A stretch of DNA of 64,000 nucleotides, taken from positions 4,665,501 to 4,729,500 of the forward strand of contig NZ_CP126980.1 of the NCBI RefSeq assembly GCF_030252345.1, in the 5' to 3' direction. Shown one piece after another: positions 43,353 to 64,000 of the stretch. Below the pieces are notes generated by a model. It was given only the letters and a program-made list of their open reading frames with translations. It was not told where the DNA came from and made no database searches. A program made the translations under genes and the position numbers. The DNA comes from Actinoplanes oblitus (GTDB lineage: Bacteria > Actinomycetota > Actinomycetes > Mycobacteriales > Micromonosporaceae). How positions within the stretch are numbered: position 1 is the stretch's first letter; every line of letters starts with the position of its first letter.

Positions 43353-44336
43353 CTACTGTCCTCCGGTGAGCGCGCCGTCGGTGTCCCGGCGCAGAACGAA
43401 ACGCTGGTACAGCAGCGCGATGGTCATGGAGACGGTGAACAGCACGACGGCGACCGCGCTGCCGTACCCGTAGTTGCTCGCGTTGCGGCCCTCGTTGACC
43501 ATGTAGGTGACCATCGTCGAGGTGCCGGCGGTGGACGCCACGTACTGGCCCCAGATGATGTAGACCATGTCGAACAGCTGCAGCGCGCCGATGATCGACA
43601 AGAAGGCCCAGATCCGGATGGTCGGCCCGAGCAGGGGCAGCGTGATGCGCCGCTGGATCTGCCAGTAGGACGCGCCGTCCACCGCCGCCGCCTCGGCCAG
43701 TTCCTCCGGGATGTTCTGCATGCCGGCCAGGAAGAGGATCACCGCGAACCCGATGTACTTCCAGGTCAGGATCATTATCAGGGTCCAGAGGGCGAGTTTC
43801 GGGTTCGCCAGCCAGTCCTGTGCCAGCCAGCCGAGACCCATCGATCGCAGTACGCCGTTGACCGCGCCGTTGGCCTGTAGCAGCAGCGCCCACGCCGTCC
43901 CGGCGATGACCTCGGCGATCACGTACGGCACGAAGATCAGCACGCGGATCGCCGAGCGGCCCCGGATCCGCTGGTTGAGCAGCAGCGCGAGGCCGATCGC
44001 GATCGGCCCCTGGAACACCAGCGAGAGGACCAGGATCAGGCCGTTGTGCCACAGGGCCTCGCGGAACGCGGTGTCCTGCAGGATGGTCCGGTAGTTGTCG
44101 AGGCCGACGAAGTTGGTCGGCGGCCCGAAGCCCTTCCACTTGTAGAAGCCGTAGTAGGCGGCCAGCAGCACCGGGAAGATCACGAACGCGAGGAACACCA
44201 GGATCGCCGGGCCGGACAGCGCCGCGATCTCCAGGCGCTGCGCCCAGCCGATGCCGCGCCGGCGGGGACGCGCCGGAGGCGGCTGCTGGCCACCTCCGGC
44301 GCGTACCCGGTCGGCCACCAGGAAGCTGCCGGCCAC
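43353..44336 (-). CDS. Sugar ABC transporter permease (MalF type)
   Basis: 327 residues, six membrane segments after a basic N-terminus. The EAA loop is EELAEAAAVDGASYWQIQRRITLPLL. FVGLDNYRTILQD after the first helix is typical of MalF-type subunits. It lies two bases from each neighbour in the operon. Confidence 0.9.
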   Translation of the reverse strand: MAGSFLVADRVRAGGGQQPPPARPRRRGIGWAQRLEIAALSGPAILVFLAFVIFPVLLAAYYGFYKWKGFGPPTNFVGLDNYRTILQDTAFREALWHNGLILVLSLVFQGPIAIGLALLLNQRIRGRSAIRVLIFVPYVIAEVIAGTAWALLLQANGAVNGVLRSMGLGWLAQDWLANPKLALWTLIMILTWKYIGFAVILFLAGMQNIPEELAEAAAVDGASYWQIQRRITLPLLGPTIRIWAFLSIIGALQLFDMVYIIWGQYVASTAGTSTMVTYMVNEGRNASNYGYGSAVAVVLFTVSMTIALLYQRFVLRRDTDGALTGGQ

Positions 44337-44338
44337 TC

Positions 44339-47399: not shown

Positions 47400-49076
47400 T
47401 CAGTCGATGCGGTACACGGCCCTGTCGAAGTCGGCGTAACCGCCCTCGGCGCCCAGATCCTGTACCCAGAGTCCGACGAAGGCGCCGGTGAAGCCCCACG
47501 CCTCGGGCTCGCCGGCGACCACCGTCGCGGCGTACTCGTCGGACAGGGTGGTGGCGTCGAAGGTCTGGCCGAGTTCGTGCCAGGCCGGCGTGCCGTCCGG
47601 GTCGAGGGTGTAGGCGAAGGTCAGCGCCGGGCCGTCCAGGCGGGCGCGCAGTCCGACCCGGCGTACGCCGCCGAGCGGGACCCGCAGGCCGGGCACCTCG
47701 CTGACCCGGCCGCTGTCGCAGCACAGCACGTCGAGCGCCGGAGTGCCGTCGTCGCCGGCCGTCACGTGCAGGTAGTACCAGTTGCGGGTGTTGTAGTAGG
47801 CGGTGATCCCGGCCAGCTGCCGGTAGTTGCCCGGCTCGAACTCGCAGGTGGCCTCGAACGTGCAGCGCTGCGCGGTGACCCGGCGGGCCACCAGGCTCGG
47901 CCGGTGCCGGGCCATCGGCGACTGGCCGCCGTGAATGCGCAGGTGCGAGGGGCGCGCGGCCAGGTCGATCCAGTCCGGCGTCGCCGGGCGGCGCAGCGTC
48001 GACCAGTTCGGGCCGAGCACCGGGGCGTCGAAATGGTCGTCCTCGGCCCGGTCGTCGCCGGGCGCCGCCACGGCGCCGGCCGGGGCCGGGACCTCCTCGG
48101 CCGGGACCCCGCCGGGAATTCGCGGCCAGTCGCCGGCCGGCCAGTCCACCCGCTGCAGGGCGCTCTCCCGGCCGAGCACGCACCGGCCGGTCGGCGGGTA
48201 CGGCCGGGCGGCCAGGTGCGCCAGATACCACTGACCGTCCGGGGTCTCCACCAGACTGCCGTGCCCGGCCTTCTGCAGGGTCAGCTCCGGGCGTCCGGTC
48301 GAGGTGAGCAGCGGCCCGGCCGGATCCACCCGGTACGGGCCGAGCAGCTCCCGGGAGCGGGCCACGGTGACCTGATGCGTCCAGGTGGTGCCGCCCTCGG
48401 CGGTGACCAGGTAGTACCAGCCGTCCTTGCGGTAGATGTTGGGTGCCTCGGTGAGGCCGGCCTCGGTGCCCTCGAAGATGAGGTGCTCGGGGCCGGTCAG
48501 CCGGCGTTCGTGGCAGTCGTAGCGCTGGGCCGAGATGCCGGCGAAGCGGTTGCGGCCGGGCCGCCAGTCGGCGCGCATCGACAGCATCCAGGTGGTGCCG
48601 TCCTCGTCGTGGAACAGCGAGGCGTCGAAGCCGCGGCCGTGCAGCACCACCGGGTCCGACCAGGGTCCGGTGATGCTGGGCGCGGTGACCAGGTAGTTCT
48701 GCGGGTCCCAGTAGCCGCCCGCGAACGTCGCCACGTCGGTGAACAGCAGGTGGAACAGCCCGTGGGCGTAGGTCAGGTTGGGCGCCCAGATGCCGCACGA
48801 GTCGGCGGTCCCGGTCAGGTCGAGCAGCCGCCGCTCGGTCAGCACGCCGCCCAGCGGCCGCCAGGTGACCAGATCGGTCGAGTGGTGCACCCGCACGCCG
48901 GGGAACCACTCGAACGTCGACGTCGCGATGTAGTAGTCGGCTCCGACCCGCAGGATCGACGGATCCGGGTGAAAGCCCGGCAGCACCGGGTTCCGGATCA
49001 CGGGATGGCCGGTCCCGCCGTCGTCGGTCGGGGCAGTGGCCGCGGTGATCGTCGTGGCGCCATCCAGGTCCGTCAT
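47400..49076 (-). CDS. GH43 beta-xylosidase/arabinofuranosidase (intracellular)
   Basis: 558 residues without signal peptide. The five-bladed propeller begins NPVLPGFHPDPSILRVGADY with the base Asp; GFDASLFHDEDG holds the pKa-modulating Asp and LTEAPNIYRKDGWYY the acid Glu. A C-terminal beta-sandwich (about 365-558) with YYNTRNWYYLHV and GFTGAFVGLWVQDL places it in the XynB-like GH43_11 type. It removes xylose from xylo-oligosaccharides in the cytoplasm. ATG at 49074-49076; the ribosome site is weak. Confidence 0.9.
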   Translation of the reverse strand: MTDLDGATTITAATAPTDDGGTGHPVIRNPVLPGFHPDPSILRVGADYYIATSTFEWFPGVRVHHSTDLVTWRPLGGVLTERRLLDLTGTADSCGIWAPNLTYAHGLFHLLFTDVATFAGGYWDPQNYLVTAPSITGPWSDPVVLHGRGFDASLFHDEDGTTWMLSMRADWRPGRNRFAGISAQRYDCHERRLTGPEHLIFEGTEAGLTEAPNIYRKDGWYYLVTAEGGTTWTHQVTVARSRELLGPYRVDPAGPLLTSTGRPELTLQKAGHGSLVETPDGQWYLAHLAARPYPPTGRCVLGRESALQRVDWPAGDWPRIPGGVPAEEVPAPAGAVAAPGDDRAEDDHFDAPVLGPNWSTLRRPATPDWIDLAARPSHLRIHGGQSPMARHRPSLVARRVTAQRCTFEATCEFEPGNYRQLAGITAYYNTRNWYYLHVTAGDDGTPALDVLCCDSGRVSEVPGLRVPLGGVRRVGLRARLDGPALTFAYTLDPDGTPAWHELGQTFDATTLSDEYAATVVAGEPEAWGFTGAFVGLWVQDLGAEGGYADFDRAVYRID

Positions 49077-49235: not shown

Positions 49236-50516
49236 TCAGACGGCGTTACAGGTCAATGGTGGCGCGCTGGCCGACCCACCGGCGGCGATCAGGCCGAAGG
49301 TGGTCGTGGCACCCGGCGCGATCGAGCCGTTGTACGTCGCGTTGGCCACCGTCGCGGTGCCGCCGCCGGTGGTCAGCGTGCCGTTCCAGACCTGGCTGAC
49401 CGACTGGCCGCTGGGCAGCGTCCAGGTCACCCGCCATCCGGTGACTGCCGCCGACCCGGTGTTGGCGACGGTCACCTCCGCCTGGAACCCGCCCGGCCAG
49501 TCGTTGACGACGCGGAACGTCGCCGTGCAGCCGCCGGGTGTCGTGGACGGCGAACTGGACGGCGAACTGGACGGCGAACTGGACGGCGAACTGGACGGCG
49601 AGGTGGACGGTGTCGTGGTGCTGGGCAGTTGCGAGAAGAACTTCCAGACCTCGCCACCGACCCAGGTCCGCGCGCCGCTCGTGCTCGTCGATCCGTCCAC
49701 CGGCTCCGGGGTGTGGTCCCCGTCGAACGCCGCCCACTCCACCGGGTAGCCCGCCCGGCAGCCGGCGTAGGCGGTGACGATGTGGGTCAGACTGCCCCGG
49801 GCCGGTTCCGGCGGGTTCTGCGGGGTGCAGCCGTTGACCCGGACGAACGTGTCCCGCAGCGCGCGTCCCTGCGAGATGTCCAGGACGCTGTCGTGGGTGC
49901 CGTGGATGCCCAGGTAGGCGATCGGCTGGGTGGCACCGGAGCAGCCGCTGAGGTTGGCCCCGGAGAGCACGGCGACCGCCCGGAAGACGGCCGGGCGGGC
50001 GCACGCGACGGCGTAGCTCATGGCGCCGCCGTAACTCCAGCCGAGGGCGAACAGCTGCGAGGTGTCGACGCACAGGTCACCCTCGATCAGCGCGGTCAGG
50101 TCGTCGACCAGGGTCAGGTCCCGGCCGCCGGTGTTCGCCCAGCCGTTGTCGATGCCCTGCGGGGCGACCAGGATCGCGCTGTTGCCGGAGAGGCCCTGCA
50201 GCCCGTAGTAGCCGGCGCTGGCGACATTGCCGGCGGTGCCGTTCAGCCAGTGGAAGGCGAAGATCAGTTTGTACGGGCGGTTCCGGTCGTAGCCGTCCGG
50301 TACCCGGAGGATGTAGGTGCGGTTCTGGCCCCCGCTGCGGATGGTGCGGGTGCCGCTGGCCAGCGTCGGCGTCTTGCCGCATCCGGCGGTGGTGGCCGCG
50401 GCGCCGACCGGGGCCGCGGTTGCGGTTCCGCCCAGCACGCCGGTGAGCATCGCGGTGGCCAGTGCCAGCGCGGCCAGGACCGCGGTCAGCTGCGGGAGAC
50501 TGCGTCGGTACGCCAT
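49236..50516 (-). CDS. Secreted CE1-like feruloyl/acetylxylan esterase with CBM2
   Basis: 426 residues with a Sec signal (about 1-35). The catalytic alpha/beta domain has LIFAFHWLNG (oxyanion), GWSYGGA with Ser161 and a later GIHGTHDSVL with Asp, as in PHB-depolymerase-like esterases. A Pro/Ser linker (about 297-322) of S-S-S-P units leads to a C-terminal CBM2 starting CTATFRVVNDWPGGFQAEV. It should remove ferulate or acetate from xylan side chains. It follows the xylanase by three bases, forming an operon. Confidence 0.88.
   Translation of the reverse strand: MAYRRSLPQLTAVLAALALATAMLTGVLGGTATAAPVGAAATTAGCGKTPTLASGTRTIRSGGQNRTYILRVPDGYDRNRPYKLIFAFHWLNGTAGNVASAGYYGLQGLSGNSAILVAPQGIDNGWANTGGRDLTLVDDLTALIEGDLCVDTSQLFALGWSYGGAMSYAVACARPAVFRAVAVLSGANLSGCSGATQPIAYLGIHGTHDSVLDISQGRALRDTFVRVNGCTPQNPPEPARGSLTHIVTAYAGCRAGYPVEWAAFDGDHTPEPVDGSTSTSGARTWVGGEVWKFFSQLPSTTTPSTSPSSSPSSSPSSSPSSSPSTTPGGCTATFRVVNDWPGGFQAEVTVANTGSAAVTGWRVTWTLPSGQSVSQVWNGTLTTGGGTATVANATYNGSIAPGATTTFGLIAAGGSASAPPLTCNAV
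49549..49608. repeat. 12-bp tandem repeat encoding the esterase linker
   Basis: Four identical copies of GGCGAACTGGAC and one variant (GGCGAGGTGGAC) code for the S-P-S-S linker between the catalytic domain and CBM2. It is a coding microsatellite, prone to length change. Confidence 0.9.
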
Positions 50517-50519: not shown

Positions 50520-51932
<1,413 letters not shown>

Positions 51933-52163
51933 TCAAGGGTGGCCAATGTTGCCAGCGCATTTCCCGCAATGACAAGACGCGACCATTGCCACAACGGCGA
52001 CATAACAGGTTCGCCGGACCGGCGAATCGCGGCGCGTGAAATCTCGCGGCGCGAAAAGTGTTATGTGCGCGAGTGCCGGCGAGTCGGGATTTCGGCGGCA
52101 CGGATTCTCGGCAAAAGACCTCTTGAATGTCTGGAAACATCCTGGCAATCTTCGGTTTCAGGC

Positions 52164-52271: not shown

Positions 52272-53363
52272 ATGCCCAGAAGCAGAGGGTGGATGCTCGC
52301 AACCGTCCTCGCCGTCGTCCTGGCCGCCGTCGGTGCCGTCGCCCGGCCCGGTGCCGCCGCCGCCGAATCCAACGGCGGTACCCGGGTCATGCCGCTCGGC
52401 GACTCGATCACCGAGGGCACCCAGGTGCCGGGCGGGTACCGGATCGGGCTGTGGCAGCGGATGGCAGCCGCCGGCTACCGGGTGGACCTCGTCGGATCGC
52501 AGTTCAACGGCCCGGCCGCCCTCGGCGACCACGACCACGAAGGACACCCCGGCTGGCGGATCGACCAGATCGACGCCAACGTCAGCGGCTGGCTGCGCAC
52601 CACCGGCCCGCGCACCGTGCTGCTGCACATCGGCACCAACGACATCCTGCAGAACTACAACGTGGCGGGTGCGCCGGGCCGGCTGTCCGCGCTGCTGGAC
52701 CACATCATCGCGGCCGCCCCGTCGGCCGACGTCTTCGTGGCCACCCTCATCCCGCTGGCCAACAGCGGACAGGAGGCGGCCGCACGTACCTTCAACGCGT
52801 CACTGCCCGGCATCGTGCAGGGCAAGGGCGCGCGGGTTCACCTGGTCGACATGCACGCCGCACTGACCGCCGCCGACCTGGTCGACGGCGTCCACCCGAC
52901 CGCCGGCGGCTACGACAAGATGGCCGCCACCTGGTACGCGGCGCTGCGCACGGTCCCGGGATCGATCGGCGACCCGGGCACCGGCACCGGCGAGGCCCTG
53001 GTCGGCACCGCCTCCGGCCGGTGCCTGGACGTGCCGAACGGCACCACCGCCAACGGCACGCAGCCGATCATCTGGGACTGCAGTGGCGCCGCGAACCAGC
53101 GGTGGGCCTACGACGGGCAGACCCTGCGGTCGCTGGGCAAGTGCCTGGACTCGCCGACCGGCGCCACGGCGGGCGCCAAGGCGCAGCTGTGGGACTGCAG
53201 CGGCGCCACGAACCAGCGCTGGACGTTCGCGTCCGGCGGCACGATCCGCAACGCGCAATCCGGTCTGTGCCTGGACGTCAGCGGCAACGCCACCGCCAAC
53301 GGCACCGCCGTCCTCCTCTGGACCTGCACCGGTTCCCCCAACCAGCTCTGGACAAGGCGATGA
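52272..53363 (+). CDS. Secreted SGNH/CE3-type esterase with CBM13
   Basis: 363 residues with a Sec signal (about 1-32). RVMPLGDSITEG has Ser45, LHIGTNDI is block III and VDGVHPTAGG holds Asp205 and His208, as in CE3 acetylxylan esterases. The C-terminal 125 residues are a ricin-type CBM13 with three CLD/W-C units. It probably deacetylates xylan. First gene of a rightward operon: its TGA overlaps the ATG of the GH27 gene. Confidence 0.88.
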   Translation: MPRSRGWMLATVLAVVLAAVGAVARPGAAAAESNGGTRVMPLGDSITEGTQVPGGYRIGLWQRMAAAGYRVDLVGSQFNGPAALGDHDHEGHPGWRIDQIDANVSGWLRTTGPRTVLLHIGTNDILQNYNVAGAPGRLSALLDHIIAAAPSADVFVATLIPLANSGQEAAARTFNASLPGIVQGKGARVHLVDMHAALTAADLVDGVHPTAGGYDKMAATWYAALRTVPGSIGDPGTGTGEALVGTASGRCLDVPNGTTANGTQPIIWDCSGAANQRWAYDGQTLRSLGKCLDSPTGATAGAKAQLWDCSGATNQRWTFASGGTIRNAQSGLCLDVSGNATANGTAVLLWTCTGSPNQLWTRR

Positions 53364-54985
53364 TGAAGAAACTCAGGACGCTGCTCGCGACGGGACTGCT
53401 GCTGCTCGCCGGTACGGCGACGGTCCTTCCCGGCACCGCCGCCCAGGCCCTGGACAACGGCGTGGCCCGTACCCCGCCGATGGGCTGGAACAGCTGGAAC
53501 ACCTTCGGCTGCAACATCAGCGAGACACTCATCCGGCAGATGGCCGACGCGATGGTCAGCAGCGGCATGCGCGACCTCGGCTACCAGTACGTCGTCGTCG
53601 ACGACTGCTGGTTCAACCCGAACCGCGACGGGTCCGGCAACCTGCAGGGCGACCCCACCCGGTTCCCCAGCGGCATGAAGGCCCTCGGTGACTACCTGCA
53701 CGGCAAGGGCCTCAAGTTCGGCATCTACCAGGTCCCGCTGGACAAGACCTGCGCGCAGTACTTCAACAGCTATCCCGGCGCCACCGGTAGCGGCGGCCAC
53801 GAGGCGCAGGACGCCCGGCAGTTCGCCGCCTGGGGCGTCGACTACCTCAAGTACGACTGGTGCTCGCCCACCGGCACCATCGACCAGCAGGTCACCACGT
53901 TCGCCAAAATGCGTGACGCGCTCGCGGCCACCGGCCGGCCGATCGTCTACAGCATCAACCCGAACAGCATCCACGCCAAGACCGGGCCGCAGCGCAACTG
54001 GGGCGACGTGGCGAACATGTGGCGCACCACCGAGGACATCAGCGCCGCCTGGGACACCGGGCAGACCAACGGCTATCCGATGGGCGTGAAGAACATCGTC
54101 GACGTCACGGTGCCGCTGGCCGGTTACGCCCGGCCGGGACAGTTCAACGACCCGGACATGATGGAGGTCGGCCGCAGCGGCCTGACCGACACCGAGCAGC
54201 GCAGCCACTTCGCGCTCTGGGCGATGCTGGCCTCCCCGCTGATCGCCGGCAACGACCTGCGCTCGATGAGCGCTGCCACCCAGACCATCCTGAAGAACCC
54301 GCGGCTGATCGCGATCAACCAGGACACCCTCGGGTTGCAGGCGACCCAGGTCGCCAATGACGGGACCCGTCGCGTGCTGGCCAAGCGGCTGGCCAACGGC
54401 GATGTCGCGGTGGCGCTGTTCAACCAGGGCGGCTCCACCACCACGGTGTCGACCACCGCCGCCGCGATCGGCAAGTCCGGCAGCTCGTTCACCCTGCAGG
54501 ACGCGTGGAGCGGCGCCACCACGACCAGCACCGGTGGCATCAGCGCCAGCGTGCCCGCGCACGGCACCGTCGTCTACCGGGTCAGCGGCGGGACCAGCAC
54601 CCCGCCGACCAGCACCACGCTCGTCAGCGCCGCCTCGGGACGCTGTCTCGACGTGCCGAACGGAGCCACCGCCAACGGCACCCAGCCGGTCATCTGGGAC
54701 TGCAACGGTGGCACCAACCAGCGCTGGACCAGCACCGGCCAGACCCTGCAGGCCCTCGGCAAGTGCCTGGACTCACCGGTGGGGGCCACCGCCGGCAGCA
54801 AGGTCCAGCTCTGGGACTGCAACGGCGGCACCAACCAGCAGTGGACGCTCAACGCCGACGGCACCATCCGAGGCACCGCCTCCGGCCTGTGCCTGGACGT
54901 CGACCACAACCTGACCGCCAACGGCACGCCGGTCCTGCTCTGGACCTGCACCGCCGCCACCAACCAGCGCTGGAGCCGTGTCTGA
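53360..54985 (+). CDS. Secreted GH27 alpha-galactosidase (or beta-L-arabinopyranosidase) with CBM13
   Basis: 541 residues with a Sec signal. TPPMGWNSWNTFGCNI opens the GH27 barrel; YLKYDW has the nucleophile Asp166 and FNDPDMMEVG (264-266) the acid/base Asp. LWAMLASPLIAGNDLRSM is also typical. The C-terminal CBM13 (about 415-541) is very like that of the upstream esterase. In a pentosan locus, release of terminal galactose or beta-L-arabinopyranose from side chains would fit; some GH27 enzymes do the latter. Start overlaps the upstream stop; the stop overlaps the next ATG by one base. Confidence 0.93.
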   Translation: MMKKLRTLLATGLLLLAGTATVLPGTAAQALDNGVARTPPMGWNSWNTFGCNISETLIRQMADAMVSSGMRDLGYQYVVVDDCWFNPNRDGSGNLQGDPTRFPSGMKALGDYLHGKGLKFGIYQVPLDKTCAQYFNSYPGATGSGGHEAQDARQFAAWGVDYLKYDWCSPTGTIDQQVTTFAKMRDALAATGRPIVYSINPNSIHAKTGPQRNWGDVANMWRTTEDISAAWDTGQTNGYPMGVKNIVDVTVPLAGYARPGQFNDPDMMEVGRSGLTDTEQRSHFALWAMLASPLIAGNDLRSMSAATQTILKNPRLIAINQDTLGLQATQVANDGTRRVLAKRLANGDVAVALFNQGGSTTTVSTTAAAIGKSGSSFTLQDAWSGATTTSTGGISASVPAHGTVVYRVSGGTSTPPTSTTLVSAASGRCLDVPNGATANGTQPVIWDCNGGTNQRWTSTGQTLQALGKCLDSPVGATAGSKVQLWDCNGGTNQQWTLNADGTIRGTASGLCLDVDHNLTANGTPVLLWTCTAATNQRWSRV

Positions 54986-56361
54986 TGCGCAGCAGATCCC
55001 TCCTCGGCATGCTCTGCACGGCGGCCCTGGTGCTGCTGGGCGCCGCGGTCCCGACCGCCGCGCACGCCGACAACCCGATTGTGCAGACCGTGTACACCGC
55101 CGACCCGGCGCCGCTGGTGTACAACGGCCGCGTCTACCTCTACACCGGCCACGACGAGGACAACTCCACCTACTTCACGATGAAGGAGTGGCGGCTGTAC
55201 TCGTCGGCCGACATGGTGAACTGGACCGACCACGGCTCGCCGATGAGCCTCGCCACGTTCAGCTGGGCGAAATCGGACGCCTGGGCCGGCCAGGTGGTCA
55301 ACCGCAACGGCAAGTTCTACTACTACGTCCCGGTCACCAACCGGGCGACCGGGCGGATGGCGATCGGGGTGGGTGTGGCGTCCAGCCCGACCGGCCCGTT
55401 CACCGACGCCCTCGGGCATCCGCTCGTGGAGAACGGCGAGATCGACCCGACGGTGTTCATCGACGACAGCGGGCAGGCGTACCTCTACTGGGGAAACCCC
55501 AATCTCTGGTACGTGCGGCTGAACTCCGACATGATCAGCTACTCCGGCGGCGTGAACCAGATCCCGCTCACCACCGCCGGTTTCGGCACCCGCACCGGCA
55601 GCACCAGCCGCCCGACCCTGTACGAGGAAGGGCCGTGGGTCTACAAGCGCAACGGCCTGTACTACAACGTCTTCGCCGCCAAGTGCTGCTCGGAGTTCAT
55701 CGGGTACTCCACAGCGCCCGGGCCGACCGGGCCGTGGACCTATCGCGGCACCGTGATGCCCACCCAGGGCAGCAGTTTCACCAATCATCCGGGAGTCGTC
55801 GACTTCAACGGCGGATCGTATTTCTTCTACCACAACGGTGCGCTGCCCGGCGGCGGCGGATACACCCGGTCGGTGGCCGTCGAGAAGTTCAGCTACAACG
55901 CGGACGGCACCATTCCGACGATCAACATGACGACGAATGGCGCTCCGCAGAACGGGACGCTCAATCCCTATGTGCGGCAGGAGGCCGAAACCATCGCGTG
56001 GAGCTCCGGTGTCGAGACCGAACCGGCGAGCGAGGGCGGCATGGACGTCGGCTATCTCAACAACGGCGACTACATCAAGGTGAAGGGTGTCGCCTTCGGG
56101 TCCGGTGCCACGTCGTTCTCCGCGCGGGTGGCCTCGGCTGCCGCCGGCGGCCGGATCGAGGTACGCCTGGGCGGCCCCACCGGCGCGCTCGCCGGGACGT
56201 GCACGGTACCGGCCACCGGTGGCTGGCAGACCTGGACCACCGTCAGCTGCCCGGTCAGCGGTGCCACCGGCACCCAGGACCTGTACCTGCGCTTCACCGG
56301 CGGCAGCGGCTACCTGTTCAACATCGACTGGTGGCGCTTCGCCGGCACGGCACTGGGATAG
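54985..56361 (+). CDS. Secreted GH43 arabinoxylan arabinofuranohydrolase with CBM6
   Basis: 458 residues with a Sec signal (about 1-28). The propeller begins YTADPAPLVYNGRVYLYTGH with the base Asp; EIDPTVFIDDSG has the second Asp and YEEGPWVYKRNGLYY the acid Glu, in the pattern of XynD-type enzymes. A C-terminal CBM6 (about 328-455) starts RQEAETIAWSSGVETE and ends LYLRFTGGSGYLFNIDWW. It removes arabinose from polymeric arabinoxylan. Third gene of the operon from 52272. The sigma-fusion gene follows after 37 bases. Confidence 0.9.
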   Translation: MRSRSLLGMLCTAALVLLGAAVPTAAHADNPIVQTVYTADPAPLVYNGRVYLYTGHDEDNSTYFTMKEWRLYSSADMVNWTDHGSPMSLATFSWAKSDAWAGQVVNRNGKFYYYVPVTNRATGRMAIGVGVASSPTGPFTDALGHPLVENGEIDPTVFIDDSGQAYLYWGNPNLWYVRLNSDMISYSGGVNQIPLTTAGFGTRTGSTSRPTLYEEGPWVYKRNGLYYNVFAAKCCSEFIGYSTAPGPTGPWTYRGTVMPTQGSSFTNHPGVVDFNGGSYFFYHNGALPGGGGYTRSVAVEKFSYNADGTIPTINMTTNGAPQNGTLNPYVRQEAETIAWSSGVETEPASEGGMDVGYLNNGDYIKVKGVAFGSGATSFSARVASAAAGGRIEVRLGGPTGALAGTCTVPATGGWQTWTTVSCPVSGATGTQDLYLRFTGGSGYLFNIDWWRFAGTALG

Positions 56362-56398: not shown

Positions 56399-57928
56399 GT
56401 GGTGGTGACGACGAACATGGCATCGACCCGGATCGGTGGCGCCGGCCTCGTGCGGGCGGCGCAGGCCGGTGACCGTGCCGCGCTCGACGAACTCGCCGCC
56501 ACGCACCTGCCGATGGTCTACACGATCGTCCGGCAGGCGCTCGACGGGCATCCGGACGTCGACGACGTCACGCAGGACATCATGCTGCGCGCCCTGCGGC
56601 AGCTCCCGTCACTGCGGGCACCGGAGAGCTTCCGGCCCTGGCTGGCCGCCATCGCGCTGCGCCAGGTGGGCACCTACCAGCACCGGGCCGACCGGGCCGC
56701 GGCCCAGCTGGTGCCGCTCGACGAGGCCACCGGGATGCCGGACGCGGAGGCGGAGTTCGAGGGCGTCACCGACCTGCGCGCCGACCTGTCGGCGCAGCGC
56801 CGCCGGGTGCAGCGGGCCGGCCGCTGGCTGGACGCCGACGATCGCCGGCTGCTGGCGCTGTGGTGGCTCGAGGTGGCCGGCCGGCTGTCGCGAGCCGAGC
56901 TGGCCGAGGCCCTCGGCGTCACCGTGCTGCACGCGGGTGTCCGGGTCCAGCGGATGCGCGCCCAGCTGGAGATCAGCCGGTCCATCGTGGCGGCCCTGGA
57001 CGCCCGGCCCCGCTGCCCGCTGCTCGCGGCCGAGGTGTCCGGCTGGGACGGACGACCCGGCCCGCGCTGGCGCAAGCGGCTGGCCCGGCACGTCCGGGAC
57101 TGTCCGATCTGCGCCCGGGCCACCGGTGACCAGGCGCCGATCGATCGGCTGCTGCCCGCGCTGGCGCTGGTCCCGGTGCCGGCGGCGGTGCTGTCCAAGA
57201 CCGTGAGCCTGACCGGCACCGCCGCCGCCGGGAAGGCCGGGGTGCTCGGCCACCTGATGGCGCTGGCGGCGGCGCACCCGGTGGTGACGGCGGTGGCCGC
57301 CGGAACCCTGATCGCCGGTACCACGGCCGGCGCGGTGGTGGTGTCCGGCCCGGCGACGTCGCAGCCGGCCACCGTCGCGCAGACCCCGCATCCGACGACC
57401 ATCGCGGCGCCGGCGTCCAGCGCCCCGGCCGGCCGGGCGGCCACCACGAGCGCCGCGCCGAGCCGCTCGGCGACCAGTGCGGCGGCCCCGCTGCGCCCGG
57501 GCCCGGTGTCGCTGGAGCCGGCGAACACCACCGGCCGCTACGTCACAGTGGCCGGCGACTACGGCATGCTGACCCGGGTCGGCCCGGACGACACCCGGGC
57601 GGCCCGCCGGCAGGCCACCTTCCAGGCGGTGGCCGGGCTGGCCGATCCGGACTGCTTCTCCTTCCGGGCCGCCGACGGCCGGTACCTGCGGCACGCGTCG
57701 TGGCGGCTGCGGGTCAACCCGGACGACGGTACGAAGCTGTTCCACGGCGACGCCACGTTCTGCCCCGGGGCCGGGGACACCCCCGGCTCGGTGACGCTGG
57801 AATCGTCCAACTACCCCGGTTGGTTCCTGCGGCACCGCGGCGACGAATTGTGGGTCGATCAGTTCGACGGCACCGCCGATTTCCGAGTCGACGGCTCCTT
57901 TCTGATACGCCCCGCACTAGCCGGCTGA
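56399..57928 (+). CDS. Membrane-anchored ECF sigma factor fused to an extracellular AbfB (CBM42) domain
   Basis: 509 residues from the GTG at 56399, which has AGGAAAG at six bases. Residues 24-96 are sigma region 2 (VYTIVRQALDG, DVDDVTQDIMLRALRQLP); 132-192 are region 4 (LAEALGVTVLHAGVRVQRMRA). HVRDCPIC (231-238) is an HxxxCxxC motif like that of zinc anti-sigma factors. One transmembrane helix spans about 294-317, followed by a Pro/Ala/Ser/Thr linker to 368. Residues 370-505 are an AbfB domain (YVTVAGDYGMLTRVG, FSFRAADGRYLRHASWRLRV, NYPGWFLRHRGDELWVDQFD), known to bind arabinofuranose side chains. It should sense arabinoxylan outside and redirect RNA polymerase inside, perhaps after proteolysis. 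Sigma factors with regulatory extensions are known; this exact architecture is not one I can place. Confidence 0.85.
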   Translation: MVVTTNMASTRIGGAGLVRAAQAGDRAALDELAATHLPMVYTIVRQALDGHPDVDDVTQDIMLRALRQLPSLRAPESFRPWLAAIALRQVGTYQHRADRAAAQLVPLDEATGMPDAEAEFEGVTDLRADLSAQRRRVQRAGRWLDADDRRLLALWWLEVAGRLSRAELAEALGVTVLHAGVRVQRMRAQLEISRSIVAALDARPRCPLLAAEVSGWDGRPGPRWRKRLARHVRDCPICARATGDQAPIDRLLPALALVPVPAAVLSKTVSLTGTAAAGKAGVLGHLMALAAAHPVVTAVAAGTLIAGTTAGAVVVSGPATSQPATVAQTPHPTTIAAPASSAPAGRAATTSAAPSRSATSAAAPLRPGPVSLEPANTTGRYVTVAGDYGMLTRVGPDDTRAARRQATFQAVAGLADPDCFSFRAADGRYLRHASWRLRVNPDDGTKLFHGDATFCPGAGDTPGSVTLESSNYPGWFLRHRGDELWVDQFDGTADFRVDGSFLIRPALAG

Positions 57929-58048
57929 CCCGACTCCGGCGAGGACCGCCGGATAACAGAAAAACGAAACCGCAAAACCGTTATGCGTACGGAATCAGCC
58001 GGGTCGTACGTAGAAACCTTTGAATCAGTGGTAACCGTCTGGCAATAT

Positions 58049-58072
58049 CGCTCACGAATGTGAGCGCTCCCA
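58049..58072. promoter_or_regulatory. Composite operator: inverted repeat plus CebR-like box
   Basis: CGCTCAC-GAAT-GTGAGCG (58049-58066) is a perfect inverted repeat that overlaps TGTGAGCGCTCCCA (58059-58072), one mismatch from the CebR box. It lies 55 bases before the CBM13-GH43 start. The gap 57929-58126 has no other feature. Confidence 0.65.
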
Positions 58073-58126: not shown

Positions 58127-60184
58127 ATGGCACTACCCGTCCGATCATCCCGCCGGCCGTGGCGGCTGCTCGCCGCGGCCCTGACCGCCGTGCTCGGCGC
58201 GGCGCTCACCTTCGCCGTCAGCTCCGTGGCCCAGGCGGCGACGATCGACACGAGCGCCTCCTACGTGCTGGTCAACCGCAACAGTGGCAAGGCGCTGGAC
58301 CTGTACAACCTGGCCACCAATGACGGGGCCAAGATCGTTCAGTGGGCGCGCAACGACCAGGCGCAGCAGCAGTGGCAGTTCGTCGACTCCGGTGGTGGTT
58401 TCTACCGGCTCAAGTCGAAGCTGTCCGGCAAGGTGCTCGACGTCTCCGGCGCCTCCACGGCCGACGGCGGCGCGGTTGTGCAGTGGACCGACAACAACGC
58501 CACCAACCAGCAGTTCAGCGTCCAGGACGTGGACGGTTACATCCAGCTGATCAACCGCAACAGCGGCAAGGCCGTCGAGGTGCAGGGCGCCTCCACGGCC
58601 GACGGCGGCGCCGTCGTGCAGTACGCCGACTGGAACGGCGCCAACCAGCAGTGGCAGCTCGTCAAGCTCGGCACCGGCGGCACCCCGTCCACCGGCACCT
58701 TCACCAACCCGGTGGTGTGGCAGGACTTCGCCGACGGCGACATCATCCGGGTCGGGGACGCCTACTACTACTCGGCGTCGACCATGCACTACTCGCCGGG
58801 CGCGCCGATCCTGCGCTCCTACGACCTGGTGAACTGGGAGTACGCGGGACACTCGGTGCCCCGGCTGGACTTCGACTCGGCGGCCTACGACCTCAACGGC
58901 GGGCGCGCGTACGTCAAGGGCATCTGGGCGTCCGCGTTCAACTACCGGCCCAGCAACAGCACCTACTACTGGCTGGGTTGCACCGAGTTCAACCGCACCT
59001 ACGTCTACACCGCGTCGGCTGTCGACGGCACCTGGTCGAAGAAGGCCCGGATCAACAACTGCTACTACGACGCCGGCCTGCTGTTCGACAATGACACCCC
59101 GTACGTCGCGTACGGCAACGGGACGATCAGCGTCGCCCAGCTCTCCAGCGACCTCACCTCCCAGGTGCGCGCGCAGGCCGTCTACACCACGCCGTCGAGC
59201 ATCGGCACCCTCGAGGGCTCCCGGATGTACAAGCGCGGCAACTACTACTACATCTGGGTGACCCGCCCGGCCAACGGCCAGTACGTGCTGCGCTCGACCA
59301 GCCCCTGGGGCCCGTACGAGCAACGCCAGGTCCTGCTCGACCTGCCCGGCCCGATCTCCGGCGGCGGGGTCCCGCACCAGGGCGGCCTGGTGCAGACCCA
59401 GAACGGCGACTGGTGGTACATGGCGTTCACCGACGCGTACCCCGGCGGCCGGGTGCCGACGCTGGCCCCGATCACCTGGAGCAACGACTGGCCGGTGCTG
59501 AGCACCGTCAACGGCCGGTGGGGCGCGAGCTACCCGAAGCCGGCCATCACCACGTCGAAGACGGTGCGCTCGATGATCGGGCCGGACACCTTCACCGGCG
59601 GCACGCTGGACCCGCGCTGGGAGTGGAACCACAACCCGGACACCAGCCGGTTCAGCGTCGGCAACGGGCTGCGGCTGGCCACCGCCACTGTCACCGGCGA
59701 CCTCTACAACGCCCGTAACACGCTCACCCACCGGATCCAGGGCCCCACCTCGACCGCCACCATCGAGCTGGACTACTCGCAGATGGCCAACGGCGACCGG
59801 GCCGGGCTGGCGATGCTGCGCGACTCGTCGGCCTGGATCGGCATCCGCAAGGACAACGGCGCCACCCGGGTGTCGATGACCAACGGGCTGACCATGAACT
59901 CCAGCTGGGCGACCACCGGCACCGGCACCGAGGCGGCCGGCGCCGCGGTGAGCGGCGGCAAGATCTGGCTGCGGGTCAGCGCCGACATCAGGCCCGGCAC
60001 CGGGCGCACCGCCACCTTCTCCTACAGCACCAACGGCAGCACCTTCACCACCCTCGGGCCGGCGTTCACCCTCACCAACGCCTGGCAGTTCTTCATGGGC
60101 TACCGCTTGGCCCTGTTCAACTACGCCACCCAGGCCCTGGGCGGCGCGGTCACGGTCAACCGCTTCGACCTGACCACACCCTGA
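58127..60184 (+). CDS. Secreted CBM13-GH43 beta-xylosidase/arabinofuranosidase
   Basis: 685 residues; signal about 1-38 (SSVAQAATID). A ricin-type CBM13 (about 39-185) with repeated N-S-G-K-A/V-L/E units precedes the GH43 propeller: NPVVWQDFADGDIIRVGDAY with base Asp, YYDAGLLFDND, and LEGSRMYKRGNYYYI with the acid Glu. A beta-sandwich ends the protein (about 485-685), as in GH43_12-like enzymes. ATG at 58127 with GAGGAG upstream; an earlier ATG at 58073 would sit on the operator. The CBM13 is nearly identical in DNA to that of the next gene. Confidence 0.9.
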   Translation: MALPVRSSRRPWRLLAAALTAVLGAALTFAVSSVAQAATIDTSASYVLVNRNSGKALDLYNLATNDGAKIVQWARNDQAQQQWQFVDSGGGFYRLKSKLSGKVLDVSGASTADGGAVVQWTDNNATNQQFSVQDVDGYIQLINRNSGKAVEVQGASTADGGAVVQYADWNGANQQWQLVKLGTGGTPSTGTFTNPVVWQDFADGDIIRVGDAYYYSASTMHYSPGAPILRSYDLVNWEYAGHSVPRLDFDSAAYDLNGGRAYVKGIWASAFNYRPSNSTYYWLGCTEFNRTYVYTASAVDGTWSKKARINNCYYDAGLLFDNDTPYVAYGNGTISVAQLSSDLTSQVRAQAVYTTPSSIGTLEGSRMYKRGNYYYIWVTRPANGQYVLRSTSPWGPYEQRQVLLDLPGPISGGGVPHQGGLVQTQNGDWWYMAFTDAYPGGRVPTLAPITWSNDWPVLSTVNGRWGASYPKPAITTSKTVRSMIGPDTFTGGTLDPRWEWNHNPDTSRFSVGNGLRLATATVTGDLYNARNTLTHRIQGPTSTATIELDYSQMANGDRAGLAMLRDSSAWIGIRKDNGATRVSMTNGLTMNSSWATTGTGTEAAGAAVSGGKIWLRVSADIRPGTGRTATFSYSTNGSTFTTLGPAFTLTNAWQFFMGYRLALFNYATQALGGAVTVNRFDLTTP
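58238..58670 (+). repeat. CBM13-coding duplication, copy 1
   Basis: These 430 or so bases and 60389-60821 are nearly the same, including silent positions over long runs; the largest difference is a short stretch around 58441/60592 (SGASTADGG against YNLSTADGG). Offset is 2,151 bases. Both code for the N-terminal CBM13 of the neighbouring hydrolases. Confidence 0.9.
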
Positions 60185-60238: not shown

Positions 60239-61765
60239 ATGACAGTGCACCTGCCCGCCGTACCGAAAGAAGAACCGGAAGCGAAGCCACCGGCGACGCG
60301 CCGCCGGACCTGGCGTGGTGCCCTCGCCGCGCTGGTCCTGCTGGCCGGCGCCGGAGTCGTGGCGGTGACCGCCTCGGCCGCGTCCGCCGCGACGATCGAC
60401 ACGAGCGCCTCCTACGTGCTGGTCAACCGCAACAGTGGCAAGGCGCTGGACGTGTACAACCTGGCCACCAATGACGGGGCCAAGATCGTTCAGTGGGCGC
60501 GCAACGACCAGGCGCAGCAGCAGTGGCAGTTCGTTGACTCCGGTGGTGGTTTCTACCGGCTCAAGTCGAAGTTGTCCGGCAAGGTGCTGGACGTCTACAA
60601 CCTGTCGACGGCCGACGGTGGCGCGATCGTGCAGTGGACCGACAACAACACCACGAATCAGCAGTTCAGCGTCCAGGACGTGGACGGCTACATCCAGCTG
60701 ATCAACCGCAACAGCGGCAAGGCCGTCGAGGTGCAGGGCGCCTCCACCGCCGACGGCGGCGCCGTCGTGCAGTACGCCGACTGGAACGGCAGCAACCAGC
60801 AGTGGCAGCTGGTGAAGGTCGGTAGCGGCACGCCGAGCTCACCGCCCCCGTCCGGATCGTGCACGCTGCCGTCGAGCTACCGCTGGTCGTCCACCGGCGC
60901 GCTGGCCACCCCGAAGTCCGGGTGGGCCTCGCTCAAGGACTTCACCGCCGTGCCCTACAACGGCAAGCACCTGGTCTACGCCACCACGCACGACACCGGC
61001 TCGTCGTGGGGCTCGATGAACTTCGGCCTGTTCACCAACTGGTCCGACATGGCCTCGGCGAGCCAGAACGGGATGAGCCAGGGCACCGTCGCGCCGACGC
61101 TGTTCTACTTCGCCCCGAAGAACATCTGGGTGCTCACCTACCAGTGGGGCGGCTCGGCGTTCTCCTACCGGACCTCGAGCGACCCGACCAACGCCAACGG
61201 CTGGTCCGCGGCGCAGCCGCTGTTCACCGGCTCGATCTCCGGCTCCGGCACCGGGCCGATCGACCAGACGATCATCGGTGACAGCACGAACATGTACCTG
61301 TTCTTCGCCGGGGACAACGGCAAGATCTACCGGGCCAGCATGCCGATCGGGAACTTCCCGGGCAGCTTCGGCTCGTCCTACACCACGATCATGAGCGACT
61401 CGACGAACAACCTGTTCGAGGCGCCCCAGGTGTACAAGGTGCAGGGCCAGAACCAGTACCTGATGATCGTCGAGGCGATCGGCAGCCAGGGACGCTACTT
61501 CCGCTCGTTCACCGCGACCAGCCTGGGCGGATCCTGGACCCCGCAGGCCGCCAGCGAGAGCAACCCGTTCGCGGGCAAGGCGAACAGCGGCGCCACCTGG
61601 ACCAACGACATCAGCCACGGCGACCTCGTCCGGTCCACCGCCGACCAGACCATGACGATCGACCCGTGTCACCTGCAGCTGCTCTACCAGGGCCGCTCGC
61701 CGAGCTCCGGCGGCGACTACGGGCTGCTGCCGTACCGTCCCGGCGTGCTCACCCTGCAGCGGTAG
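60239..61765 (+). CDS. Secreted CBM13-GH62 alpha-L-arabinofuranosidase
   Basis: 508 residues. A basic N-terminus of about 30 residues and a hydrophobic helix to AASAATID form a long signal. CBM13 occupies about 52-195, then a short SSPPPSG linker. The GH62 domain has [20 protein letters not shown] with base Asp, [14 protein letters not shown] with the second Asp and [18 protein letters not shown] with acid Glu. GH62 enzymes remove arabinose from mono-substituted xylose in arabinoxylan. It lies 54 bases after the GH43 gene and 12 before the GH127 gene, so the three form an operon. Confidence 0.93.
60389..60821 (+). repeat. CBM13-coding duplication, copy 2
   Basis: Partner of 58238-58670, inside the GH62 gene. 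The copies diverge at once after the domain, where the GH43 and GH62 catalytic parts begin. Confidence 0.9.
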
Positions 61766-61777: not shown

Positions 61778-64000
61778 ATGACTCCGTTTCCGATCAGCCG
61801 GCGCCGGCTCCTGCAAGCCGCCGGCGCCGGCGCGGTCGCCACCACCCTCGGCGCGGTCTCCCGCGCCGAGGGCGCGGTGGCGCCGGCCCGCCCCGACCTC
61901 GGCGTCGCGGCCTACCCGTTCGAGTTCGGGCGGGTCCGGCTGACCGCCGGACGCTGGCTGGACAACCAGGCCCGCACCCTCAACTACCTGCGCTTCGTCG
62001 ACGTGGACCGGCTGCTCTACAACTTCCGGGTCAACCACGGCCGGTCCACCGGTGGCGCCGCCGCCAACGGCGGCTGGGACGCGCCGAACTTCCCCTTCCG
62101 TACGCACATGCAGGGCCACTTCCTGACCGCCTGGGCTCAGGCGTGGGCCGCACTCGGTGACACCACCTGCCGGGACAAGGCCACCTACCTGGTCGCCGAG
62201 CTGGCCAAGTGCCAGGCGTCCAACGGTTACCTCTCGGGCTTCCCGGAGTCCGACTTCGCCGCCCTGGAGGCGGGCACCCTGTCCAACGGCAACGTGCCCT
62301 ACTACTGCGTGCACAAGACGCTCGCCGGGCTGCTCGACGCGTGGCGGCTGATCGGCGACACCACCGCGCGCGACGTGCTGCTGCGGCTGGCCGGCTGGGT
62401 GGACACCCGGACGGCGCGGCTCAGCGGCAGCCAGATGCAGGCCGTGCTGGGCACCGAGTTCGGCGGCATGAACGAGGTGCTGGCCGCCCTCTACCAGCAG
62501 ACCGGGGACGCCCGGTGGCTCACCGTCGCCCAGCGCTTCGACCACGCGGCGGTGTTCAACCCGCTGGCCGCGGGCAGCGACCAGCTCAACGGGCTGCACG
62601 CCAACACCCAGGTGCCCAAGTGGGTCGGCGCGGTCCGCGAGTACAAGGCGACCGGGACGACCCGGTACCGCGACATCGGCGTCAACGCCTGGAACATCAC
62701 CACCGGCGCGCACACCTACGCGATCGGCGGCAACAGCCAGGCCGAGCACTTCCGCGCGCCGAACGCCATCGCCGGCTATCTCACCAACGACACCTGCGAG
62801 CACTGCAACACCTACAACATGCTGAAACTGACCCGGGAGCTGTGGCTGACCGACCCGGACCGGGCCGCCTACTTCGACTACTACGAACGGGCGCTGTTCA
62901 ACCACCTGATCGGCGCGCAGAACCCGGCCGACAGCCACGGCCACATCACCTACTTCACGCCGCTGCGGGCCGGCGGGCGGCGCGGCGTCGGGCCGGCGTG
63001 GGGAGGTGGCACCTGGTCCACCGACTACAACAGCTTCTGGTGCTGCCAGGGCACCGGCGTGGAGACCAACACGAAACTGATGGACTCCATCTACTTCTTC
63101 AGCGGGACCACGCTGACGGTCAACCTGTTCACGCCGTCGGTGCTGTCCTGGGCCGAGCGGGGCATCACCGTCACGCAGAGCACGTCGTACCCGGTCGGCG
63201 ACACCACCACGCTGACGCTGTCCGGCACGATGAGCGGGTCGTGGAGCATCCGGGTCCGCATCCCGGGCTGGACGTCGGGGGCCACGCTCGCCGTCAACGG
63301 GGTGGCGCAGGACGTCGGCGTCACGCCGGGCAGCTACGCCACCGTCACCCGGACCTGGGCGGCCGGCGACGTGCTGACCGTGCGCCTGCCGATGCGAGTG
63401 ATCATGCAGGCCACGCCGGACAACCCGGCGGTGCAGGCCATCACGTACGGCCCGGTGGTGCTGGCCGGCAACTACGGCAGCACGACGCTGTCCGGCAACC
63501 CGTCGCTGACCGTGTCGTCGATCGCCCGGACCGGCTCCGGCAGCCTGGCCTTCACCGCGACGGCGAACGGCGCCACCGTCAACCTCGGGCCGTTCCACGA
63601 CGCGCAGGGCTTCAACTACGCGGTCTACTGGAACACCGCCGGCGGCACCGACCCGGTCTACAAGCTGGTGAACGTGGCCTCCGGGCTGGTCCTCGGCGTC
63701 AAAGACATGTCCACCGCCGACGGCGGGACGGCCATCGTCTGGGGAGACACCGGCACCGCCGACCACAACTGGGTGCGGATCGCCGACGGCTCGGCCGTCC
63801 GGTTCCGCAACGTCAACAGCGGCAAGGTCCTCGGCGTGGAGAACATGGCGACCGGTGACAACGCGCGCGTCCTGCAGTGGGCCGACAACGGGACCGCCGA
63901 CCACCGCTGGACGCTGGTCGCCAACGGCGACGGCTCCTACCGGGTGCGCAACGTCAACAGCGGCAAGGTGCTCGCCGTGCTGGGCGCCTCCAGCACCTGG
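61778..64000 (+). CDS. Tat-exported GH127-type beta-L-arabinofuranosidase with CBM13 (3' end outside window)
   Basis: At least 741 residues; the frame is open to the right edge. SRRRLLQAAGAGA is a twin-arginine signal. The (alpha/alpha)6 barrel has NFRVNHGRSTGG, QASNGYLSGFPES and HVNTQ-like HANTQVPKWVGA. Glu341 and Cys343 (CEHCNTYN) and Cys422-Cys423 (FWCCQGTG) correspond to the zinc-bound catalytic cysteine centre of GH127. A ricin-type domain (from about 630) reads VNVASGLVLGVKDM. It cleaves beta-L-arabinofuranosyl links, complementing the alpha-specific GH43, GH51 and GH62 enzymes. Start ATG 61778, 12 bases after the GH62 stop. Confidence 0.88.
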   Translation, partial: MTPFPISRRRLLQAAGAGAVATTLGAVSRAEGAVAPARPDLGVAAYPFEFGRVRLTAGRWLDNQARTLNYLRFVDVDRLLYNFRVNHGRSTGGAAANGGWDAPNFPFRTHMQGHFLTAWAQAWAALGDTTCRDKATYLVAELAKCQASNGYLSGFPESDFAALEAGTLSNGNVPYYCVHKTLAGLLDAWRLIGDTTARDVLLRLAGWVDTRTARLSGSQMQAVLGTEFGGMNEVLAALYQQTGDARWLTVAQRFDHAAVFNPLAAGSDQLNGLHANTQVPKWVGAVREYKATGTTRYRDIGVNAWNITTGAHTYAIGGNSQAEHFRAPNAIAGYLTNDTCEHCNTYNMLKLTRELWLTDPDRAAYFDYYERALFNHLIGAQNPADSHGHITYFTPLRAGGRRGVGPAWGGGTWSTDYNSFWCCQGTGVETNTKLMDSIYFFSGTTLTVNLFTPSVLSWAERGITVTQSTSYPVGDTTTLTLSGTMSGSWSIRVRIPGWTSGATLAVNGVAQDVGVTPGSYATVTRTWAAGDVLTVRLPMRVIMQATPDNPAVQAITYGPVVLAGNYGSTTLSGNPSLTVSSIARTGSGSLAFTATANGATVNLGPFHDAQGFNYAVYWNTAGGTDPVYKLVNVASGLVLGVKDMSTADGGTAIVWGDTGTADHNWVRIADGSAVRFRNVNSGKVLGVENMATGDNARVLQWADNGTADHRWTLVANGDGSYRVRNVNSGKVLAVLGASSTW

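What the first reader, a model, noticed from the sequence alone, without database searches (positions are those of the whole stretch)
56399..57928. One-protein arabinose sensor: ECF sigma factor, zinc-finger motif, membrane helix and AbfB domain
The sequence shows sigma regions 2 and 4, an HxxxCxxC motif (231-238), one membrane helix and a complete AbfB/CBM42 repeat domain in one frame with its own ribosome site. The gene sits between the arabinofuranohydrolase and CBM13-GH43/GH62 genes. Clostridial SigI/RsgI systems split this job over two proteins with the CBM on the anti-sigma; here sigma, a possible anti-sigma element and the sensor are one chain. Sigma factors with membrane and carbohydrate-binding extensions have been grouped before (I recall ECF52), but I do not know of an AbfB version tied to a pentosan locus.
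Basis: partly seen in the sequence, partly recalled or inferred. Interest (0 to 1): 0.88.

Follow-up and report, generated by a model that had tools for sequence, protein, structure and literature searches.

The report
One-protein arabinoxylan-sensing sigma factor
A soil bacterium carries one protein that joins a gene switch, its likely off-lock, a membrane anchor and an outside sugar-binding head, in the middle of its plant-fibre (arabinoxylan) digestion genes; the layout is a known kind, but this arabinose-binding branch and its close tie to those genes look new.

Summary
The gene is real. 56399-57928 (+) encodes 509 aa: ECF sigma domain, zinc anti-sigma-type (ZAS) motif C206/H231/C235/C238, one hydrophobic stretch, Ser/Ala/Pro linker and a complete AbfB (CBM42) beta-trefoil. 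It is not a frameshift: of 113 distinct family ORFs collected (the best hits, not a census), 66 carry the same fusion in one frame and all 113 keep the zinc motif. Others carry GH128-like, beta-helix, Lcl_C, DUF4185 or unidentified extensions; one sub-branch lacks anchor and sensor. AbfB members have a GH62 arabinofuranosidase gene within 8 kb in 51 of 66 cases, against 0 of 32 with other sensors. A promoter-like element (CTTGA-N8/9-GAAAY-N4-TGGCAAYAT) stands three times in the window, before the operon holding the sigma gene and before the two flanking hemicellulase operons, and precedes hemicellulase genes in related genomes. Whether this sigma factor reads it is unproved: two genomes without the family have it, and six GH9-type cellulase genes share its core. 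The fused sigma-ZAS-membrane-CBM plan is published for ECF52 and predicted for ECF53; by sequence this clade is not the SCO4117-type ECF52 branch. Verdict: a new, sharply locus-linked variant of a known kind.

The parts
56399..57928 (+). sigma-ZAS-TM-AbfB fusion gene, 509 aa
56438..56710 (+). sigma region 2 (residues 14-104)
   Evidence: Pfam Sigma70_r2 at 33-94; helices in the model
56744..57001 (+). sigma region 4 (residues 116-201)
   Evidence: TIGR02937 over 28-191; model helices; no Pfam Sigma70_r4 match listed
57014..57112 (+). zinc anti-sigma (ZAS) motif C206, H231, C235, C238
   Evidence: 66/66 rows, 113/113 family ORFs
57257..57313 (+). likely membrane helix (residues about 287-305)
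   Evidence: hydropathy; low-confidence helix 282-310
57350..57496 (+). Ser/Ala/Thr/Pro-rich linker (residues about 318-366)
   Evidence: sequence; pLDDT below 50 over 293-361
57509..57907 (+). AbfB/CBM42 beta-trefoil (residues 371-503)
   Evidence: Pfam 4.5e-42; Foldseek to RsgI5 CBM42 9fnk, TM 0.91 on the target
51946..51976 (-). promoter-like element before GH10 operon
52122..52151 (+). promoter-like element before the operon that ends in the sigma gene
58019..58048 (+). promoter-like element before CBM13-GH43 / CBM13-GH62 / GH127
58059..58072 (+). palindromic box TGTGAGCGCTCCCA just after the element (LacI-family operator by recall)
47400..49076 (-). GH43 with GH43_C2
49236..50516 (-). esterase with CBM2
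50520..51884 (-). GH10 xylanase with CBM2
52272..53363 (+). GDSL esterase with ricin-B/CBM13-type lectin
53360..54985 (+). GH27 with CBM13-type lectin
54985..56361 (+). GH43 with CBM6
58127..60184 (+). CBM13-type lectin with GH43
60239..61765 (+). CBM13-type lectin with GH62
61778..64000 (+). GH127 with CBM13-type lectin, runs to the window end
45872..47392 (+). GH51-type alpha-L-arabinofuranosidase
42517..45628 (-). sugar-type ABC transporter (binding protein and two permeases)

Best explanation
A membrane-tethered, one-protein signalling sigma factor. The CBM42 head outside the cell binds arabinofuranosyl residues of arabinoxylan or its fragments. In the resting state the cytoplasmic zinc (ZAS) segment, in cis, holds sigma regions 2 and 4 inactive. 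Ligand binding triggers release, probably by proteolysis at or near the membrane as proposed for ECF52, and the freed sigma domain directs RNA polymerase to hemicellulase operons of its own locus, including the operon that encodes it. Shown: the gene, its parts, their conservation, the linkage to GH62/GH10/GH43, and a shared element before all three operons. Inferred: membrane topology, ligand, cis inhibition, release. Least certain: that the element CTTGA-N8/9-GAAAY-N4-TGGCAAYAT is what this sigma reads.
For: Domains. Zinc ligands invariant in 66/66 and the motif present in 113/113. Beta-pocket H432 and D451 66/66, H479 44/66. Two invariant cysteines C419 and C455 in the AbfB domain, aligned with cysteines of fungal AbfB, fit an extracytoplasmic head. 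GH62 within 8 kb of 51/66 AbfB members against 0/14 GH128-sensor and 0/18 other-sensor members (2/13 short); GH10 44/66 against 0/32 (4/13 short) (Fisher for GH62 1e-14, rows not independent). Element: 3 in the window at up to 3 mismatches, 0.19 expected, 0 of 100 shuffles with 3 or more. In the 9.8 Mb genome all 3 one-mismatch hits, and 4 of 7 at up to 2 mismatches, lie at the two AbfB-sigma loci, though those loci seeded the search (reversed control 1). In one search, 36 hits against 1 for the reversed control. Of 29 fetched hits outside the loci held at discovery, 24 carry the TTG block that was not part of the search; 20 of those 24 precede a GH, esterase or CBM gene, 0 of the 5 without it. 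G041, at first counted as a negative, had one hit; one search then found a 72% AbfB-sigma orthologue about 140 bp from it.
Against: No expression, binding or proteolysis data. The element is not exclusive: G050 and G052 carry it before GH62/GH43 genes yet have no family sigma at 1e-25. Six GH9-type cellulase genes (L219, L220, L223, L224, L235, L236) share the GAAAC..TGGCAACAT core with a TTGACA block, five of them in genomes without an AbfB sigma. Among 22 family-level genomes tested for the sigma, excluding GH9-type hits, TTG-type hits occur in 4 of 8 with an AbfB sigma and 2 of 13 without (G088 ambiguous, left out; G073 has a hit without TTG). In G058 no hit lies beside its sigma genes. The spacer is conserved too, which a sigma alone does not explain, and TGG-CAAYAT resembles an extended -10 (recalled). 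No copy was found between genes in Streptomyces AbfB loci with the pattern. Model pTM is 0.43 and the membrane part has pLDDT below 50.
Confidence: 0.62

Rival explanations
1. Same sensor protein, different reader: the shared element is read by the housekeeping sigma (TTGA, 17-18 bp, extended -10) with an unknown activator plus a LacI-type repressor; the AbfB sigma is itself one of the controlled genes and has other, unidentified targets.
For: Element present in G050 and G052 without the family; GH9-type promoters with TTGACA and the same core; conserved spacer; 17-19 bp between TTGAnn and CAAYAT; a GAGCGCTCCC-type box often follows. Related GH128-sensor sigma genes have quite another upstream element, TGTTATC-N15/16-CGTC[TC]CC.
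Against: The closest negatives (G006, G008, same genus) have no TTG-type hit at one mismatch. The element lies roughly 100-300 bp 3' of the sigma gene in the window, G041, G067, G080 and G081. The supposed -10 begins with C in 42 of 43 instances, poor for a housekeeping -10 (consensus recalled), but the search pattern fixed that position, so this counts for little.
Confidence: 0.42
2. The AbfB domain is an anchor to plant cell wall or to another arabinose-bearing polymer, and the sigma answers another cue such as envelope or redox stress through the zinc site.
For: SCO4117, with a similar layout, is reported to control differentiation and antibiotic production (PMC5826349 abstract and passages). 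A branch without membrane stretch and sensor persists.
Against: GH62/GH10 linkage of AbfB members and its absence with other sensors; beta-pocket invariance.
Confidence: 0.15
3. Fusion produced by a sequencing frameshift, or a decaying gene.
For: One relative, L114, reads in two frames, and in G080 sigma and AbfB matches lie in two different open frames.
Against: 66 distinct single-frame fusions in several genera; complete single-contig genome.
Confidence: 0.01

Closest known systems
ECF52 sigma factors (SCO4117 of Streptomyces coelicolor)
   Same: One chain with ECF sigma, zinc finger, membrane helix, linker and carbohydrate-binding domain; proteolytic release proposed (PMC5826349 abstract and passages; PMC8999054 passages)
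   Different: SCO4117 carries smart00776 after a proline-rich stretch and is reported to act on development and antibiotics; sigma domains of two SCO4117-like NPCBM proteins score 33 and 36 bits here; this clade has AbfB and sits in hemicellulase loci
ECF53 and ECF48 sigma factors
   Same: C-terminally fused zinc and membrane extension in Actinobacteria; some ECF52/53 predicted to hold glycosyl hydrolase or carbohydrate-binding domains (PMC8999054, PMC10766802 passages)
   Different: No profile or member sequence was available, so identity with ECF53 is open; it may well be the published group that holds this family
SigI/RsgI of Clostridium thermocellum, especially RsgI5
   Same: CBM42 head on a membrane anti-sigma linked to plant-polysaccharide sensing (PMC4711584 passages); RsgI5 CBM42 is a close structural match (9fnk, TM 0.91 on the target)
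   Different: Two separate proteins; SigI is not an ECF sigma and RsgI has no ZAS zinc motif (recalled)
IutY (ECF243) of Pseudomonas putida
   Same: Sigma and regulatory membrane parts in one protein, released by proteases (PMC8999054 passage)
   Different: Iron-siderophore signal; no carbohydrate-binding head (recalled)

Membership tests
ECF sigma factor | sigma regions 2 and 4 only | tested here: met
   TIGR02937 6.8e-17 over 28-191, Pfam Sigma70_r2 1.2e-10; no Pfam region 4 match listed
ZAS anti-sigma domain | C/H...H-x3-C-x2-C zinc site | tested here: met
   C206, H231, C235, C238 in 66/66; 113/113 family ORFs; Pfam zf-HC2 not listed for this protein, weakly for L140 (0.0081, below its cut-off); zinc binding itself not tested
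ECF52 | layout sigma-zinc-membrane-linker-CBM in one chain | tested here: met
   membrane helix by hydropathy only
ECF52 | sigma domain in the SCO4117 clade | tested here: not met
   L210 and L212 (NPCBM fusions, SCO4117-like by layout) 33 and 36 bits against 226-414 for members, cut-off 200; BLASTP of L212 none
ECF53 | assignment by the published ECF53 profile | not testable with these tools
   Huang 2015 and the NAR 2021 reclassification are not held
CBM42/AbfB | beta-trefoil with His/Asp arabinofuranose pockets | tested here: met
   Pfam 4.5e-42; Foldseek to 9fnk, 9nxi, 3kmv; H432/D451 66/66, H479 44/66, inferred alpha-pocket position 384 is His in 4/66; binding not tested
RsgI anti-sigma | RsgI N-terminal domain with SigI partner | tested here: not met
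   no RsgI_N or SigI match among the Pfam rows with limit E 10 (in one search, 25 of 48 NCBIfam rows were shown)

The most novel reading that the evidence does not exclude
Actinobacteria hold a family of one-protein polysaccharide sensors in which one sigma-ZAS-membrane chassis carries swappable outside modules, including GH128-like domains that keep active-site-like motifs (motifs recalled, alignment). Each branch reads its own promoter class. The AbfB branch alone switches on an arabinoxylan regulon through CTTGA-N17/18-CAAYAT-type promoters, self-amplifies, and has given rise to a soluble, sensor-less branch that still sits beside xylanase or GH5-like genes.
Probability: 0.33. Interest if true: 0.78.

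Novelty: new variant of a known kind. Interest (0 to 1): 0.6.

Why it matters
How actinobacteria sense insoluble hemicellulose and switch on xylanases is poorly understood; a review seen here says that the CBM and hydrolase fusions predicted for ECF52/53 await experimental validation (PMC10766802 passage). This locus gives one sensor, three candidate promoters and nine enzyme genes within some 17 kb, so the idea can be tested with one deletion and one reporter. The swappable sensor also suggests a way to build polysaccharide-responsive gene switches.

Tried and rejected
Canonical ECF promoter patterns were not enriched before the sigma and hydrolase genes: for GGAAC-N15-18-CGT[CT], 2 of 175 regions against 23 of 778 others. 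A two-part word screen over all loci was confounded by orthologous Streptomyces sequence; the within-locus two-part screen found nothing; single words shared within a locus gave TGGCAA and its neighbours. GAAAC as an ECF -35 was rejected: little is conserved 16-17 bp further on. No element was resolved for Streptomyces AbfB loci. ECF52 membership rejected by sequence. Frameshift artefact rejected. Literature searches for an AbfB-fused sigma (0 papers, listings only, with 12 of 14 papers listed and 12 of 56) showed none in this open-access library, which lacks the main ECF classification papers.

ORFs under 200 bits with the family sigma profile and ORFs with identical first 240 residues were dropped; loci L001-L026 are covered by larger fetches; two family genes were missed by the gene caller, L096 and L114. 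In one search six of 36 hits were not fetched and L076's genome was not held. Family sigma was tested in 22 of the 40 other genomes. By identical coordinates G078 of that set is the same genome as G034, and G065 the same as G032.

Full report
WHAT IS THERE. The frame GTG 56399 to stop 57928 encodes 509 residues. Pfam finds Sigma70_r2 (1.2e-10) and AbfB (4.5e-42); NCBIfam TIGR02937 covers both sigma regions. An AlphaFold2 model from the 66-row alignment (mean pLDDT 80.8, pTM 0.43) shows sigma helices 14-104 and 116-201, short helices 207-251 around the zinc motif, a low-confidence helical stretch 282-310, a low-confidence linker and a well-predicted beta-trefoil 368-505. The trefoil matches solved CBM42 domains, among them that of the anti-sigma factor RsgI5 (9fnk, TM 0.91 on the target).

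THE LOCUS. The neighbours form an arabinoxylan set: on the minus strand GH10-CBM2, esterase-CBM2 and GH43; on the plus strand GDSL esterase-CBM13, GH27-CBM13 and GH43-CBM6 overlapping or touching one another, then the sigma gene 37 bp further; then CBM13-GH43, CBM13-GH62 and GH127-CBM13; beside these a GH51-type arabinofuranosidase and an ABC transporter. The genome (9.8 Mb, one contig) has four family members that match over the sigma domain at 1e-70 or better: this one; a second AbfB fusion at 6056356 (50% identical), also near GH10 and GH62; one with a beta-helix and one with a Glyco_hydro_cc (GH128-like) domain.

THE FAMILY. A scan of named genomes kept the best 80 of 487 confirmed loci. 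A search of 20 genomes, the own one included, found the family in 12: the own genome and all 11 others of the genus, and 0 of 8 from other families of the order. After removal of duplicates 113 family ORFs remain, 66 with AbfB. Of the 111 placed on called genes, 66 are AbfB, 13 short (no membrane stretch or sensor), 14 GH128-like and 18 other. Among ten representatives scanned the extensions were Beta_helix, Glyco_hydro_cc, Lcl_C, DUF4185 or, in two (L112, L118), without a Pfam match. In a sigma-domain tree, rooted at the midpoint for drawing only, the short forms (14 with L096) are one group (99/89) within a 39-row AbfB-plus-short branch (100/98), which suggests that they lost the sensor. Some short forms lie before GH10 genes and others near ORFs that look like GH5 (the GH5 label is by eye).

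LINKAGE. With window hydrolase domains as BLAST queries, GH62 lies within 8 kb of 51 of 66 AbfB members, 2 of 13 short, 0 of 14 GH128-sensor and 0 of 18 other members; GH10 of 44/66, 4/13, 0/14 and 0/18. Many Streptomyces loci are one conserved block, so the rows are not independent, and some flanks are cut by contig ends. In Actinoplanes-type loci the order and strand of GH62 vary while the link stays.

THE SHARED ELEMENT. Words shared within a locus by promoters of sigma and hydrolase genes, but not by other genes, led to CTTGA-N8/9-GAAAY-N4-TGGCAAYAT. The window has three copies, 0.19 expected and 0 of 100 shuffles reaching three, one before each of the three operons. In the own genome there are 7 hits at up to 2 mismatches (reversed control 1); the three best lie at the two AbfB-sigma loci, and the three that lie elsewhere lack the TTG block. 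In the genomes, those with an AbfB- or short-clade sigma have a TTG-type hit in 24 of 32; those without, 0 of 15, although 3 of these 15 have a core hit lacking the block. G041 was moved from the second group to the first after one search found its AbfB sigma beside its only hit, and many of the 24 hold loci used for discovery. Of 50 fetched one-mismatch loci lie in loci already held and 29 do not. Of these 29, 24 have the TTG block, and 20 of those 24 precede a hydrolase, esterase or CBM gene (GH10, GH27, GH43, GH54, GH59, GH62, GH95, GDSL, CBM2); one is unresolved (L164) and three are not of that kind (L166, L195, L196). The five without the block precede none. The spacer between TTGAnn and CAAYAT is 17 bp in 30, 18 in 12 and 19 in 1 of 43 instances; the core letters in that count are largely fixed by the search pattern, the TTG block is not.

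AGAINST THE SIMPLE READING. A draw of 40 further genomes of the family gave exceptions. G050 and G052 have TTG-type hits before GH62 or GH43 genes but no family sigma at 1e-25. The core with TTGACA stands before GH9-type cellulase genes in six genomes (CelD_N and CBM4_9 in six of six, the GH9 domain itself seen in two because the stretch is cut), five of them without an AbfB sigma. Counting only other hits with TTG, 4 of 8 AbfB-sigma genomes and 2 of 13 without have one (G088 left out as ambiguous; G073 has a hit without TTG; the sigma of G080 reads in two frames; G065 is the same genome as G032); alone this is weak. The element may therefore belong to a wider plant-polysaccharide promoter class read by another factor. 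On the other side, it lies roughly 100-300 bp 3' of the sigma gene in the window, G041, G067, G080 and G081, though not in G058. Members with GH128 sensors have their own upstream element TGTTATC-N15/16-CGTC[TC]CC, ECF-like by recall: 15 hits in the loci scanned, 13 of them before family sigma genes (12 of these in one orthologous group), and in L120 one before the sigma gene and one before the next gene, an alginate-lyase-like/AbfB protein. That would fit autoregulation and branch-specific promoters.

WHAT IT WORKS LIKE, AND WHAT IT IS. It most likely works like the published model for ECF52: outside binding, release from the membrane, sigma activity (PMC5826349 abstract and passages; PMC8999054 passages). 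The CBM42 beta pocket (His and Asp, from PMC12493170 passages; mapped by me) is invariant here; the gamma His is kept in 44 of 66 and the inferred alpha-pocket position is His in 4 of 66. By sequence it is not in the SCO4117 branch. Whether it is the published ECF53 group could not be tested. The layout is known, hence 'new variant of a known kind'.

VERDICT. The reading 'arabinose sensor in one protein' is likely but better put as arabinofuranosyl-polysaccharide sensor; target control is unproved. Interest 0.6.

Noticed in passing
L093-L106, L111, L115, L116 (not L098, L100, L104): A branch of sigma-ZAS proteins without membrane stretch or sensor, within the AbfB clade, near GH10 or GH5-like genes; all nine Streptomyces ones examined have a CTTGA-type block with CAATCT/CAATGT about 17 bp further, downstream of the sigma ORF.
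   Followed up: partly
L040, L121-L139 (GH128-sensor loci), L120: Sigma genes with GH128-like sensors share an upstream element TGTTATC-N15/16-CGTC[TC]CC; in L120 it also precedes the next gene (alginate-lyase-like with AbfB).
   Followed up: partly
L219, L220, L223, L224, L235, L236: GH9-type cellulase genes of other genera of the family have TTGACA promoters with the same GAAAC..TGGCAACAT core and a GGGAGCGCTCCC-type box.
   Followed up: partly
58059-58072 and many related loci: A LacI-type palindrome (GAGCGCTCCC, by recall) follows the shared element closely, which suggests a second, repressing layer of control.
   Followed up: no
L052-L085 (Streptomyces AbfB loci): A CTTTGGC...GACGCTAAGG-like block upstream of the sigma gene in many of the 14 loci aligned (of 27 listed), unlike the Actinoplanes element; in most of the 27 a nearby gene matches GH10, CBM13 and GH62 at once.
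   Followed up: no
L038, L054, L060, L071: Upstream of these AbfB-sigma genes stands CTTGA with TACGATC about 17 bp further, sharing the -35-like block with the hemicellulase element.
   Followed up: no
L114: An AbfB-sigma gene that reads in two frames in one hybrid assembly; described only.
   Followed up: no
32124-34481 (-): GH59 with a ricin-B lectin domain in the window; GH59 genes elsewhere (L189; L226 is the same place) carry the element, this one has none within 3 mismatches.
   Followed up: partly
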